Source: Candidatus Electrothrix rattekaaiensis (GTDB lineage: Bacteria; Desulfobacterota; Desulfobulbia; Desulfobulbales; Desulfobulbaceae). Taken from it: 64,000 bases of DNA. Positions 2 through 28,253 of this stretch are shown piece by piece (position 1 is the stretch's first letter; each line of letters opens with the position of its first letter). The stretch is from assembly GCA_032595675.1 (NCBI GenBank), contig JAVQMD010000002.1:1054001-1118000 (forward strand). The letters run 5' to 3'. The translations under genes and the position numbers were made by a program. The notes under the pieces are model-generated. The model was given only the letters and a program-made list of their open reading frames with translations, did not search any database and had not been told where the DNA came from.

Positions 2-946
2 CTGATTGTGGTGGTCATGGTGCTGAGTTCTGTGGAAGATGCCATGAACGCTATCTGGCATACCCGACGCGGCCGCTCCCTGTTCCGCAAAATTATGGAT
101 TATCTGGCCCTACTTGTCCTTCTCCCCATCTCGGTCAATATTGCCTTGGCCGGTGACGCTATCCTGCAATCGCCCAAGATAATGGAGTACATCATCACCT
201 TTATTCCGTCAACTTGGGTCGTGCAGATGCTCCTGAAGCTGCTGCCGTTCATCTTCATCACCCTGTCTCTGATGATGATGTATCTTTTTTTTCCCAATGT
301 GAAGGTCAAAACGACCGCAGCTTTTTGCGGGGCTCTGTTCGGTGCGGTCTTCTGGTTTATTGTCCAGCGTGCCTATGTGGTTCTTCAGATAGGCGTGGCA
401 AACTATAATGCCATTTATGGATCCTTTGCCACGGTTCCGCTTTTTCTCGTCTGGATTCAGCTGGGCTGGATGTTCGTCCTGCTCGGTGCAGTTCTGGCCT
501 ATGCTATTCAGCATCGCAACAGCTATCAGTTGTCAGGGACAGAGAGCAATACCCGCCAGGATCTTCAGCGGACCTTTGATATTTTGATTACGGTCTATAA
601 TAATTTTGCCTTAGGTCGAGCCACCGTGTTGGATCAGCTGGTAGAACAGAGTCAGGTGGTGAACGAGACCGATCTGGCCCGTCCCCTGGATCTGTTGTTT
701 CATGGCGATTTGCTGCACGAAATCGACCAGGATGGAACAGCCGCCTTTATCCCCTGTCGCCCTCTTGAACAGGTCGATGCGGTCCAGATTATTCGCCTGA
801 TACTTGGTAAAGACGGAGAAGCGGACTCTGTGGGCGGGCATCTTGCTGATCAGGTTGTCAAAGCGGCAGAGGAGTTTCTTTCGGCGGGAGATTTTCCAGA
901 TAAATACCTGACCAAAAGTCTCACACATCAAGCGAGTGCGGCATAG
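2..946 (+). CDS. YihY/BrkB-family inner-membrane protein (5' end outside window)
   Basis: The frame is open from the first bases, so the gene begins upstream of the window. The N-terminal two thirds holds several hydrophobic segments (around residues 35-50, 75-95, 105-125 and 145-165) and the glycine/aromatic-rich block with YGSFATVPLFLVWIQLGW, typical of the YihY (formerly tRNA-processing ribonuclease BN) family. The C-terminal 120 residues are soluble and look like the winged-helix-type tail seen in longer family members. The function of the family is unknown; location is the inner membrane. Family call is from motif recognition only. Confidence 0.8.
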   Translation: MIVVVMVLSSVEDAMNAIWHTRRGRSLFRKIMDYLALLVLLPISVNIALAGDAILQSPKIMEYIITFIPSTWVVQMLLKLLPFIFITLSLMMMYLFFPNVKVKTTAAFCGALFGAVFWFIVQRAYVVLQIGVANYNAIYGSFATVPLFLVWIQLGWMFVLLGAVLAYAIQHRNSYQLSGTESNTRQDLQRTFDILITVYNNFALGRATVLDQLVEQSQVVNETDLARPLDLLFHGDLLHEIDQDGTAAFIPCRPLEQVDAVQIIRLILGKDGEADSVGGHLADQVVKAAEEFLSAGDFPDKYLTKSLTHQASAA

Positions 947-1237
947 GCTCTCAGGGGAAACTGTGCTCCAACAGCCTGCGCCGGTCGCCGCTAGAACTGA
1001 GCCATATGTCCCTTTTCAAAACCCACTCTCTTGTTTCCCTTTTTCTCCTGTTTATGATAAAGTAGGCAGGATGTAAGCCCTTCAACCGTATTCGCCTGTG
1101 AGAGAGCAGGCGGACAGCAATCCTGCTCCCTTTTTTTGTGCGGCTCCGGGGCTTGTTCCCGTGCTTTACAGGCTATGAACCTTCTCCCTTTGAGGCGGGG
1201 CGGTTCAGTTGAGAATGATGACGTGCTGTGTACAATA

Positions 1238-2476
1238 ATGATCGGAGAAATTATAGCCATCGGCGACGAGCTGACTTCGGGCCGAATAACCAACACCACC
1301 AGTGCCTTTGCCGCCAGAGAGCTTTTTCGGGCCGGTCACGAGATCTATGCCATGCACACCATTGGGGATACGCCCAAGCTGATCGGCGAGGCTTTGCAGC
1401 GGGCAATCCAACGGGTGGATTTTGTCATTGTTACCGGCGGACTGGGCCCGACCACGGATGATCTGACCAATGAGGCAGTTGCCGAGGCCCTGCAACGTCC
1501 GGCCACCTTGAACGAGGCAATCCTGGAAAAGATCCGTTCTCAGTTGCAGGATCCTGATGGACAGCTTGATGCCTTGGAAAAGCTGGCTTGGCTACCGGAA
1601 GGGGCCGAGGTGTTGAGCGCGGAGGAACGGATGGCCGGTCATCTGCTCGTGCATGATGATATCCCTATCTTTTTTCTTCCCGGAGTGCCGATGCAGGCCC
1701 AAAAACTGCTGGTGGATATTGTCCTGCCGCGTTTGTCCGGCTGGAGCGGCTGTAATAAGTATCAGCGGATGCGCTTGTACAAGACCGTAGGGCTGCCTGA
1801 ATACAAAATCAATCAGCTCCTTATGCCGTTGGAGCAGGAAAAAAAGGTGTCAGTTGGCTATTATCCGGTGGATTTTGAGGTGCATGTGAGCCTCAGCGTC
1901 TCCGGCAAGAGTGCCGAGGAAGCGGATGCCTTGTTCATTGATGCCGAGGAGCGGATTCAGGAAGCCCTGGGTGATTATATTTACGGCACAGACCGGGAAA
2001 CCCTGGCCGAGGTCGTGGGAAATCTGCTCAAAGCAAAGCATCTGATGCTGTCCATAGCGGAATCCTGTACCGGTGGCCTGATCTGTTCGCAAATGACCTC
2101 TGTTCCGGGCAGTTCGGAGTGGTTTGCCGGCGGGGTGGTCTCCTATTCCAACCATCTCAAGGAAGTCCTCCTCAATGTGGATCGGGATCTGCTGCGTAAT
2201 TACGGAGCGGTCAGCGGGCAGGTGGCCAGAGCAATGGCGGCCCGGCTGGCGGCTCGGGTGGGTACTAAGATCTCCCTTTCTGTTACCGGTATTGCCGGAC
2301 CCGGCGGCGGTACAGCGGAAAAGCCGGTGGGCACGGTGTATATCGGTTTTTTTTATAAGAATAAGGTTAAGGATACCCTGCATCATTTTTCCGGCGGGCG
2401 GAAGGAGATTCAGGAGATGACGGCCCAGACTGCCTTGGATATGGTGCGGCGGATTTTGTCGGAGGATGAGGTATAA
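1238..2476 (+). CDS. cinA: CinA-like protein (nicotinamide mononucleotide deamidase / competence-damage protein)
   Basis: A 412-residue protein with both CinA domains. The N-terminal molybdopterin-binding-like domain begins MIGEIIAIGDELTSGR and contains VTGGLGPTTDD. The C-terminal PncC-type amidohydrolase domain starts near residue 270 with IAESCTGGL and includes SVTGIAGPGGG. The family deamidates nicotinamide mononucleotide in pyridine nucleotide salvage and is often linked to recA, as here. I chose the ATG at 1238 because homologues start directly at the IIAIGDEL block; the longer reading from 1136 adds an unrelated N terminus. recA follows on the same strand after a repeat-rich gap of about 370 bp. 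Confidence 0.92.
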   Translation: MIGEIIAIGDELTSGRITNTTSAFAARELFRAGHEIYAMHTIGDTPKLIGEALQRAIQRVDFVIVTGGLGPTTDDLTNEAVAEALQRPATLNEAILEKIRSQLQDPDGQLDALEKLAWLPEGAEVLSAEERMAGHLLVHDDIPIFFLPGVPMQAQKLLVDIVLPRLSGWSGCNKYQRMRLYKTVGLPEYKINQLLMPLEQEKKVSVGYYPVDFEVHVSLSVSGKSAEEADALFIDAEERIQEALGDYIYGTDRETLAEVVGNLLKAKHLMLSIAESCTGGLICSQMTSVPGSSEWFAGGVVSYSNHLKEVLLNVDRDLLRNYGAVSGQVARAMAARLAARVGTKISLSVTGIAGPGGGTAEKPVGTVYIGFFYKNKVKDTLHHFSGGRKEIQEMTAQTALDMVRRILSEDEV

Positions 2477-26337: not shown

Positions 26338-27438
26338 CTACTCCTTGTCACCGAGACAGATACCGATGGACCGGGCAGTCAGTACCTTATCACTTTTGAG
26401 ATCCACCTGTTTCCGGCAGCGGATGGCATCTTCCAATAAGACGGCTGACATGGTGGGCGGGGTCCAGGCCACCATCCGATCAAACAAACCTTCCGCAGCC
26501 ATACGCACAGCAGCCGCCCCGAAACGAAGGGCCAGCAGGCGATCAAAGGTGGTCGGTGAGCCTCCCCGTTGGAGATGACCGAGAACCAGTGATCGGGTAT
26601 CCTTACCGATCTTCTTTCTGATTTCCTCGGCCACCCATTCTCCGATACCGCCGAGGACAACCTCTTGCCGTCCGGCCTCTCCCTTGCCGCGATTTCTCAC
26701 CTCGCCGCCTTCTTCCTTGGCACCTTCCGCAACCACAACAATGGAATAATGTTTTCCGTGCAGCTCGTTCTCGCTGATTTTGGTGCAGACCGCATCCATA
26801 TCAAAGGGGATCTCCGGGAGCAGGACAACATCAGCACCGCCTGATATCCCAGAATAAAGGGCAATCCAACCGGAATCTCTGCCCATAACCTCGACAACCA
26901 TGACCCGATCATGGGATTTGGCTGTGGAATGAAGTTTATCCAAGGCATCGGTCGCTGTGGATACCGCTGTGTCAAAACCAAAGGTTCGGTCTGTGGCTTC
27001 GAGATCATTATCAATGGTTTTGGGTACGCCGACAACCGGCATTCCCAATTCCGCGAAACGATGCGCTATTTCCAAACTCCCGTCACCGCCGACAGCGATA
27101 TGGCAATCAAAGCCCATACGTTTAAACCCGTCCATGACCTTCCCGGAGACATCAACCAGCTTTTCCTCATCAGCAAAATTTTTCACTGGCATGGAAAAGG
27201 GGTTTCCCTTATTTGTTGTGCCGAGGATTGTCCCGCCGGTAGATGTTATTCCTTCAACATCAGAGGGCATCAGGCGGACCATCTCATCTTTGTCCAGAAA
27301 CCCCATATAGCCGTGCCGACTGCCGTAGACCTCCCAGCCGAGTTTGGTTGCGGATTTCACTACCGCAAAAATCACCGCGTTCAGGCCAGGTGCATCTCCT
27401 CCGCCTGTGGAAATCACTATTTTATTCATCGTATTCAC
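26338..27438 (-). CDS. pfkA: 6-phosphofructokinase
   Basis: 366 residues of the PfkA family. STGGGDAPGLNAV binds the nucleotide; the catalytic block VPKTIDND and the substrate motif VEVMGRDSGWIAL are intact, as is LGHLQRGGSP. The phosphoryl-donor position is GGDGS, the Gly form typical of ATP use, while the PKTIDND Lys is the residue seen in pyrophosphate-type and mixed-lineage enzymes; donor specificity is therefore not settled. It is followed closely by the endonuclease III-like gene on the same strand. Confidence 0.92.
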   Translation of the reverse strand: MNTMNKIVISTGGGDAPGLNAVIFAVVKSATKLGWEVYGSRHGYMGFLDKDEMVRLMPSDVEGITSTGGTILGTTNKGNPFSMPVKNFADEEKLVDVSGKVMDGFKRMGFDCHIAVGGDGSLEIAHRFAELGMPVVGVPKTIDNDLEATDRTFGFDTAVSTATDALDKLHSTAKSHDRVMVVEVMGRDSGWIALYSGISGGADVVLLPEIPFDMDAVCTKISENELHGKHYSIVVVAEGAKEEGGEVRNRGKGEAGRQEVVLGGIGEWVAEEIRKKIGKDTRSLVLGHLQRGGSPTTFDRLLALRFGAAAVRMAAEGLFDRMVAWTPPTMSAVLLEDAIRCRKQVDLKSDKVLTARSIGICLGDKE

Positions 27439-27634: not shown

Positions 27635-27663
27635 TTGACTTATCAAATAAACTGCCGTACGAT
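27635..27663 (+). promoter_or_regulatory. Candidate promoter for the HesB-like selenoprotein gene
   Basis: TTGACT and TACGAT are separated by 17 bp, in the 406-bp divergent gap between pfkA and the selenoprotein gene. It predicts a 5' leader of about 175 bases. The remainder of the gap is AT-rich and without genes. Confidence 0.5.
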
Positions 27664-27844
27664 AAAAAGTAATGTGAATATTTTTATTTTTTCTGTTTTT
27701 TTCGATCCTCCCTGCACCTCTATTGGGCTGTTTAGATCGAAGAAAATTGAGAAGCATAGAAAGAAAGAGAAACAAAAAAGTAAGAGTTTGATTTGATGTT
27801 CTGGATGGATGTCAAATTCAGTTTTTAACAACTTGGAGGTTATT

Positions 27845-28186
27845 ATGCTGGAAGTAACGAGTTCAGCGGTCGAGAATCTTAAAACATATCTCGCCGACAA
27901 TAATATTGAATCCGCGATCCGCATCTCGCTGATGCAGGGCGGCTGAGCAGGCCCCTCGCTGGGATTGGCTCTGGATGAGCCAAAAGAAAATGATGAGACT
28001 TTTGAAGAAGGTGGTGTTCAGTTTTTGGTTGAGCAAGGCCTGATCAAAACTTGTGGTACCATTAAGGTGGACTTCCTGGAAGCCGGATACCGCTCAGGTT
28101 TTTCTATCACTTCCGAAAACCCTGTAAGTGGCGGTGGTGGCGGCTGTAGCTCCGGTTCCTGCAGCACCGGGAGTTGTGGCGGTTGA
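27845..28186 (+). CDS. HesB/IscA-like selenoprotein with in-frame UGA (Sec34)
   Basis: A continuous 113-codon frame from ATG 27845 (GGAGG seven bases upstream) contains one TGA at 27944-27946 and ends at TGA 28184-28186. The protein reads ...RISLMQGG-U-AGPSLGLALDEP, exactly where HesB/IscA relatives have their first cluster-binding Cys (GGC-x-GPSLG). The C terminus is Gly/Ser-rich with three further Cys (GGCSSGSCSTGSCGG). A stable hairpin follows the UGA at the spacing expected for a bacterial SECIS. Family role would be Fe-S or redox handling; HesB-like selenoproteins are known from deltaproteobacteria. Standard gene calling starts at 27965 and loses the first third. Confidence 0.9.
27947..27983 (+). 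promoter_or_regulatory. Bacterial SECIS-like element
   Basis: Immediately after the in-frame UGA, a perfect 7-bp stem TTGGCTC/GAGCCAA (27965-27971 with 27977-27983) closes a five-base loop TGGAT. The loop starts 26 bases after the UGA and has G at its second position, both within the published bacterial SECIS pattern. It would bind SelB and recode UGA as selenocysteine. Confidence 0.75.
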
Positions 28187-28213: not shown

Positions 28214-28253
28214 AGCCTCTGTCCTGACATACCGGGACAGAGGCTTTTTTTTT
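28214..28253 (+). terminator. Rho-independent terminator of the selenoprotein gene
   Basis: Stem AGCCTCTGTCC/GGGACAGAGGCT followed by nine T, 27 bp past the stop codon. The T tract touches the stop codon of the convergent carboxypeptidase gene. Confidence 0.92.

What the first reader, a model, noticed from the sequence alone, without database searches (positions are those of the whole stretch)
27845..28186. HesB-like selenoprotein hidden by an in-frame UGA with a SECIS-like hairpin
The frame from ATG 27845 is continuous except for one TGA (codon 34) and is homologous-looking on both sides: GGU-A-GPSLG replaces the GGC-x-GPSLG of HesB/IscA relatives. A perfect 7-bp hairpin with a G-containing 5-base loop begins 18 bases after the UGA. 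A good promoter and an excellent terminator frame the gene. HesB-like selenoproteins are known in deltaproteobacteria, but this gene is lost by normal gene callers, which start at 27965. Replacing a cluster-ligand Cys with Sec suggests redox rather than scaffold chemistry.
Basis: partly seen in the sequence, partly recalled or inferred. Interest (0 to 1): 0.8.

Follow-up and report, generated by a model that had tools for sequence, protein, structure and literature searches.

The report
Selenium-containing HesB/IscA-like protein gene
A close relative of a cable bacterium carries a small gene whose apparent stop codon is very probably read as the rare amino acid selenocysteine, giving a selenium version of an iron-sulfur-cluster carrier protein; it is a solid case of an already described selenoprotein family.

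Summary
ATG 27845 to the stop at 28184-28186 is one gene with an in-frame TGA at codon 34 (27944-27946). It belongs to NCBIfam NF038090 'IscA_HesB_Se' (142.6 bits, cut-off 85), so the kind is already named. Evidence that TGA means selenocysteine: of 69 family copies, 55 carry TGA at this codon and 14 carry Cys. Both sides of the TGA are under purifying selection. The 5-bp core of the hairpin after the TGA is intact in 52 of 52 distinct TGA copies but 1 of 14 Cys copies, and in 8 of 8 further TGA copies. The genome has tRNA-Sec, SelA, SelB and SelD. A genus without SelA, or SelB above cut-off, shows only Cys copies. Against: at least 20 SelA-negative genomes, mostly fragmentary, hold a TGA copy. 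The predicted fold is IscA's. 'Redox rather than scaffold' is not supported, since the Cys-rich tail is kept; a Sec-liganded Fe-S carrier is at least as likely. Nearest named relative: Candidatus Electrothrix aarhusensis. Well supported, but a known kind.

The parts
27845..28186 (+). hesB-like selenoprotein gene, 113 residues with Sec34, plus TGA stop
   Evidence: Translation with TGA read through; NF038090 142.6 bits over cut-off 85; family match in 238 of 257 genomes of the order at E<=0.001, 228 of 257 over the cut-off
27944..27946 (+). in-frame TGA, predicted selenocysteine codon 34
   Evidence: Aligned codon is TGA in 55 of 69 copies (the window's own among them) and TGC/TGT in 14 of 69; aligns with the Cys of IscA's GCSG motif
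27965..27983 (+). bacterial SECIS-like hairpin, 7 bp with loop TGGAT, 18 bases after the TGA
   Evidence: 5-bp core intact in 52 of 52 distinct TGA copies (all 7 pairs in 35 of 52) and in 1 of 14 Cys copies, Fisher p 7e-13; core intact in 8 of 8 further TGA copies
27834..27839 (+). Shine-Dalgarno-like TGGAGG, 5 bases before the ATG
   Evidence: read directly in the sequence
27635..27663 (+). moderate sigma-70-like promoter match (TTGACT-17-TACGAT, 9 of 12)
   Evidence: not much above chance
28214..28245 (+). intrinsic terminator, 13-bp stem followed by T8
28127..28183 (+). codes for the Gly/Ser/Cys-rich C-terminal tail (residues 95-113) with Cys101, Cys106, Cys111
   Evidence: residues 97-113 modelled with pLDDT under 50
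26338..27438 (-). divergent neighbour: phosphofructokinase (TIGR02483, 453.7 bits, cut-off 430.55)
   Evidence: the same divergent arrangement upstream of 38 of 52 distinct TGA copies

Best explanation
The gene encodes a HesB/IscA-like selenoprotein of the NF038090 family. During translation, SelB with Sec-tRNA reads UGA 27944-27946 as selenocysteine, directed by the hairpin 18 bases downstream (supported by comparative genomics, not by biochemistry). The protein folds like the A-type Fe-S carriers IscA and SufA (predicted). Sec34 takes the place of the conserved loop Cys that in IscA binds the cluster, and the flexible Cys-rich tail supplies the other ligands. Most likely it binds an Fe-S cluster or a metal through Se and S and hands it to clients (inferred). 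The confidence given is for the identity and the recoding; within that, I put about 0.6 on the carrier mechanism and about 0.3 on the redox rival.
For: NF038090 142.6 bits over cut-off 85. TGA at the aligned codon in 55 of 69 copies and Cys in 14 of 69 (copies were picked as best-scoring or nearest, so this is no population frequency). Purifying selection on both sides of the TGA against six TGA-bearing relatives (L054-L058, L060): dN/dS 0 to 0.128 in the 11 of 12 comparisons where it could be computed (L058 codons 35-94 was saturated). Codons 42, 43 and 45, which form the hairpin, are GCT, CTG and GAG in 52 of 52 distinct TGA copies, while codons 35-41 use 2 to 6 synonyms and Cys copies vary at 42, 43 and 45 too. 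Own genome: tRNA-Sec 74.8 bits over 47, anticodon TCA; SelB 375.9 over 242.25; SelA 626 over 267.9; SelD 343.8 over 125, with its own in-frame TGA in the context CG-stop-AAKI. All 5 genomes of genus g12 have no SelA match and no SelB above cut-off, and none of their 11 family rows (5 above cut-off, 6 below) has a TGA; codon 34 is TGC or TGT. The five best Foldseek hits are IscA and SufA chains, E 5e-8 to 3e-6.
Against: No selenium incorporation, cluster binding or expression was measured. Of 43 genomes of the order without a SelA match, at least 20 hold a TGA copy: 8 of the 14 that I examined (G016, G089, G117, G126, G127, G155, G170, G179; three of them single-contig) and 12 more seen in the capped list (G004, G038, G043, G046, G053, G114, G161, G180, G208, G210, G223, G237). 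SelB is above cut-off in 7 of the 8 examined, not in G155; the other 12 were not tested for SelB. The C-G-C tail motif of IscA is absent (C-x4-C-x4-C instead). The general model TIGR00049 is missed by 1.5 bits (57.3 against 58.8). The tail is unmodelled, so tail Cys as ligands is inference. The hairpin's folding energy is not unusual. One distant, below-cut-off copy (L111, from G155) has CGG (Arg) at codon 34.
Confidence: 0.93

Rival explanations
1. A selenoprotein, but Sec34 works as a redox residue (selenol paired with Cys70 or a tail Cys), not as a cluster ligand; this was the first reader's reading.
For: PMC13188914 (passages) says that most uncharacterised selenoproteins likely serve redox functions. 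An extra Cys70 is nearly invariant in the 51-row alignment.
Against: Sec34 sits at the ligand position of an IscA fold and at least 3 tail Cys are kept in all 66 distinct copies. The window motif is U-x-G-P, not CxxU or UxxC. Cys70 is missing in L080, L081, L082, L083 and L084, four of which carry TGA.
Confidence: 0.3
2. A pseudogene or sequencing error: the TGA is a nonsense mutation or a miscall of TGC/TGT.
For: One base separates TGA from TGC/TGT.
Against: TGA is at the same codon in 55 of 69 copies, with purifying selection downstream and a hairpin core kept in all distinct TGA copies but almost no Cys copies.
Confidence: 0.01
3. Translation really starts at TTG 27965, giving a short C-terminal protein, and the TGA ends a separate short ORF.
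For: It is what an ordinary ORF caller gives.
Against: It would cut the IscA domain (the NF038090 match covers residues 1-103). A TGGAGG site precedes ATG 27845. Codons 1-33 are as strongly conserved as the rest.
Confidence: 0.02
4. UGA is read as Trp or as another residue by a changed genetic code.
For: None beyond an open frame.
Against: The residue is Cys in all 14 non-TGA copies, never Trp (a distant below-cut-off copy, L111, has Arg). The genome has the Sec machinery. TGA is also the normal stop of this very gene.
Confidence: 0.01

Closest known systems
NCBIfam NF038090 IscA_HesB_Se (IscA/HesB family protein)
   Same: Full-length match, 142.6 bits over cut-off 85; the model's short name points to selenoprotein members
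   Different: No difference was found; this is a member
HesB-like selenoprotein, TIGR01911 HesB_rel_seleno (the model that PMC13188914 lists for the HesB-like family, motif UxGP; passages)
   Same: IscA/HesB homology; Sec in a U-x-G-P motif
   Different: Scores 41.6 bits, under this model's cut-off of 66.35: a sister subfamily
HesB-like selenoprotein of Methanococcus maripaludis
   Same: HesB-like and Sec-containing; identified by mutagenesis and 75Se labelling according to PMC11097638, which calls its function unclear (passages)
   Different: Archaeal; not compared by sequence here
A-type carriers IscA / SufA / ErpA
   Same: Predicted fold (1r94, 1s98, 1x0g, 2d2a); Sec34 aligns with the Cys of the GCSG motif; Cys-containing C-terminus
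   Different: Sec in place of Cys; tail C-x4-C-x4-C, not C-G-C; an extra Cys70

Membership tests
NF038090 IscA_HesB_Se | score over the curated cut-off | tested here: met
   142.6 against 85 bits, residues 1-103
bacterial selenoprotein (HesB-like) | in-frame TGA aligned with Cys in homologs | tested here: met
   55 TGA, 8 TGC, 6 TGT of 69
bacterial selenoprotein (HesB-like) | SECIS hairpin shortly after the UGA, with G near the start of the apical loop (rule recalled) | tested here: met
   7 bp, loop TGGAT; core kept in 52 of 52 distinct TGA and 1 of 14 Cys copies
bacterial selenoprotein (HesB-like) | SelA, SelB, SelC, SelD in the genome | tested here: met
   own genome, each over the family's cut-off
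bacterial selenoprotein (HesB-like) | selenium found in the protein | not testable with these tools
   needs 75Se labelling or mass spectrometry
TIGR01911 HesB_rel_seleno | score over the curated cut-off | tested here: not met
   41.6 against 66.35 bits
A-type Fe-S carrier (IscA/SufA/ErpA) | IscA fold | tested here: met
   Foldseek best hits IscA and SufA; model mean pLDDT 80.7
A-type Fe-S carrier (IscA/SufA/ErpA) | TIGR00049 cut-off | tested here: not met
   57.3 against 58.8 bits, with C for U; Pfam PF01521 is met, 30.1 against 26.3
A-type Fe-S carrier (IscA/SufA/ErpA) | C-terminal C-x-C motif (recalled) | tested here: not met
   tail C-x4-C-x4-C in the window protein
A-type Fe-S carrier (IscA/SufA/ErpA) | binds and transfers an Fe-S cluster | not testable with these tools
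   needs biochemistry

The most novel reading that the evidence does not exclude
A dedicated A-type carrier that holds its Fe-S cluster through a selenium ligand and serves a specific anaerobic client: the Cys paralogue in the same genome sits beside a double-cubane [8Fe-9S] protein gene, and the Sec copy has a widely kept divergent phosphofructokinase neighbour.
Probability: 0.2. Interest if true: 0.6.

Novelty: new member of a known kind. Interest (0 to 1): 0.27.

Why it matters
It is a well-supported selenoprotein in a close relative of the cable bacterium Candidatus Electrothrix. No paper in the open-licence library searched holds both 'Electrothrix' and 'selenocysteine' or both 'cable bacteria' and 'selenoprotein'; subscription papers were not searched. 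The family is present in 147 of 148 of the better genomes of the order, and its role is called unclear where it was looked at in M. maripaludis (PMC11097638, passages). The natural Sec/Cys pairs found here (both copies in one locus) would make it possible to ask what selenium does in an Fe-S carrier-like protein.

Tried and rejected
Rejected: pseudogene or miscall, alternative start at 27965, and UGA as Trp (reasons under rivals). The Rfam scan of the window gave no match at gathering level. Folding energy of the hairpin against shuffles was uninformative, so I compared TGA with Cys copies instead. Plasmid search: no match. The search for papers holding both 'double-cubane cluster' and 'HesB' returned none. 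In the A-type-carrier paper PMC2682760 (find passages only) 'selenocysteine' occurs once, in the reference list. The tree has few columns and 30 of 63 inner branches open; the Sec/Cys label needs 8 changes by parsimony, 2 of them forced by starred branches, and the direction of change was not tested. Controls of the machinery searches: the tRNA-Sec model rings in 14 of 14 control genomes but over its cut-off in 5, SelB 14 and 2, SelA 4 and 1, SelD 14 and 2; I therefore count only matches over the cut-off.

Full report
Observation. The frame 27845-28186 (+) is continuous but for TGA at 27944-27946, codon 34; it ends with TGA at 28184-28186. A caller with standard stops gives only TTG 27965-28186, 73 aa, in this frame. 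A TGGAGG site (27834-27839) stands 5 bases before the ATG; a strong terminator lies at 28214-28245; the promoter evidence is moderate.

Family. Read with Cys at the TGA, the protein matches NCBIfam NF038090 IscA_HesB_Se over residues 1-103 with 142.6 bits (cut-off 85), TIGR00049 with 57.3 (cut-off 58.8, just missed) and TIGR01911 HesB_rel_seleno with 41.6 (cut-off 66.35, not met). Pfam PF01521 is met at 30.1 against 26.3. The family has a match at E<=0.001 in 238 of 257 genomes of the order, over the cut-off in 228 of 257, and at E<=0.001 in 147 of 148 of the better genomes; among 14 control genomes 8 have a match, none over the cut-off.

Organism. The closest named locus is Candidatus Electrothrix aarhusensis (L054, 96% protein identity); two stretches of L054 align with the window at 85% and 91% DNA identity. 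The genome is probably that of a close relative within or near Candidatus Electrothrix, family Desulfobulbaceae; its own name was not given.

Is the TGA selenocysteine? (a) In 69 family copies that reach codon 34, from loci L024-L087 (the window's own L086 among them), the codon is TGA in 55, TGC in 8 and TGT in 6. These loci were the best-scoring of the order or the nearest to the query, so the ratio is not a frequency in nature. (b) Against six TGA-bearing relatives both sides evolve under purifying selection: for example Electrothrix gigas L055, 11 synonymous and 0 nonsynonymous differences in codons 1-33, 22 and 7 in codons 35-94; dN/dS was 0 to 0.128 in 11 of 12 comparisons and not computable in one. 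(c) The 5-bp core of the hairpin, loop TGGAT or TGGAC, is complete in 52 of 52 distinct TGA copies (all 7 pairs in 35) and in 1 of 14 Cys copies, Fisher p 7e-13; the sequences are related, so this describes rather than tests. Codons 42, 43 and 45 are GCT, CTG and GAG in 52 of 52 TGA copies, whereas codons 35-41 use 2 to 6 synonyms, and in Cys copies 42, 43 and 45 vary as well. Eight TGA copies fetched later also keep the core, 8 of 8. (d) Own genome: tRNA-Sec 74.8 bits, anticodon TCA by ARAGORN, SelB 375.9 bits, SelA 626 bits, SelD 343.8 bits, each over its cut-off. SelD has one in-frame TGA in the context CG-stop-AAKI, which I recall as the usual SelD selenoprotein context. (e) Natural experiment: the 5 genomes of genus g12 have no SelA match and no SelB above cut-off; none of their 11 family rows, 5 above and 6 below the cut-off, holds a stop, and codon 34 is TGC or TGT. 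Two of the five are only 69% and 78% complete.

Results against. Of 257 genomes, 43 have no SelA match. Of the 14 of these that I examined, 8 hold a TGA copy (G016, G089, G117, G126, G127, G155, G170, G179), and the capped list shows a TGA copy in 12 more (G004, G038, G043, G046, G053, G114, G161, G180, G208, G210, G223, G237). Most are fragmentary, but G117, G126 and G127 are single-contig. SelB is above cut-off in 7 of the 8 examined, not in G155; I did not test the other 12. Many SelA matches lie within a few hundred bases of a contig start (for example G025, G120, G133, G174, G086), so assembly gaps are a plausible reason in drafts, but I did not resolve whether selA is lost, unassembled or withheld as N. 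G113 has SelB, no SelA match and one family copy, with Cys. One distant below-cut-off copy, L111 from G155, has CGG at codon 34.

What it does. AlphaFold2 from 51 family sequences gives mean pLDDT 80.7, with residues 97-113 under 50. The best Foldseek hits are IscA 1r94 and 1s98, IscA with [2Fe-2S] 1x0g, and SufA 2d2a. In the phmmer alignments Sec34 falls on the Cys of the GCSG motif of 1r94 and 1nwb; that this Cys is a cluster ligand is general knowledge. Each of the 66 distinct copies has 3 to 5 Cys after residue 94 (the 5 of L079 is inflated by an uncertain start). A8, R26, residue 34, G36, L39, D44, D50, G85 and F86 are invariant in the 51-row alignment, where TGA was read as Cys. A carrier that binds an Fe-S cluster or metal through Se and tail S is my preferred mechanism (about 0.6 within the selenoprotein reading); redox use of Sec34 remains possible (about 0.3). 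The confidence of 0.93 refers to the identity as a HesB-like selenoprotein.

Surroundings. The divergent neighbour is phosphofructokinase. It stands divergently upstream of 38 of 52 distinct TGA copies; 12 others had at least 700 bases of upstream flank without it and 2 had less. Six of 14 Cys copies lie in such a locus, each together with a TGA copy. The tree mixes Sec and Cys copies: 8 changes by parsimony, at least 2 forced by well-supported branches. L025 holds a TGA and a TGC copy, the latter with a hairpin one base away from the standard, and L036 is a TGC copy with the core intact. These look like recent Sec-to-Cys changes with a fossil SECIS, like the Desulfitobacterium hafniense HesB-like case in a figure legend of PMC1794560 (passage); that direction is my inference.

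Known or new. HesB-like selenoproteins are counted in PMC1794560 (11 in its Table 1; several deltaproteobacteria in its Table 3; passages), listed in PMC13188914 (passages), and in M. maripaludis identified by mutagenesis and 75Se labelling according to PMC11097638, which calls the function unclear (passages). This finding is a new member of a known kind. The searches for Electrothrix with selenocysteine and cable bacteria with selenoprotein found no paper in the open-licence library.

Noticed in passing
L087:1474-1830 (-) and 165-1544 (-); own genome G000:C1 about 1620317-1621973: The second, Cys-containing NF038090 copy of the genome lies directly upstream of a double-cubane-cluster protein gene (NF040772, 490.3 bits over 350). 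In G000, G221, G222 and G233 a stop-free family copy lies within about 2 kb of a double-cubane gene on the same strand, and L083 shows the same at about 1.3 kb. Against a general link: in G113, G126, G127, G170 and G179 the two families are present but not adjacent, and the four g12 genomes searched have no NF040772 match.
   Followed up: partly
window 26338-27438 and related loci: Divergent phosphofructokinase upstream of 38 of 52 distinct TGA copies; reason unknown.
   Followed up: partly
G117, G126, G127 (single-contig genomes): A TGA-bearing HesB-like copy and SelB above cut-off, but no SelA match.
   Followed up: no
L025:1501-1827 and 1942-2268; also L039, L043, L048, L066, L067: A Sec (TGA) and a Cys copy of the gene in one locus.
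   Followed up: partly
L018 (own genome G000:C1:1925405-1926334): SelD is itself a predicted selenoprotein; a second SelD-like gene without an internal stop occurs at C1:1741955-1742899.
   Followed up: no
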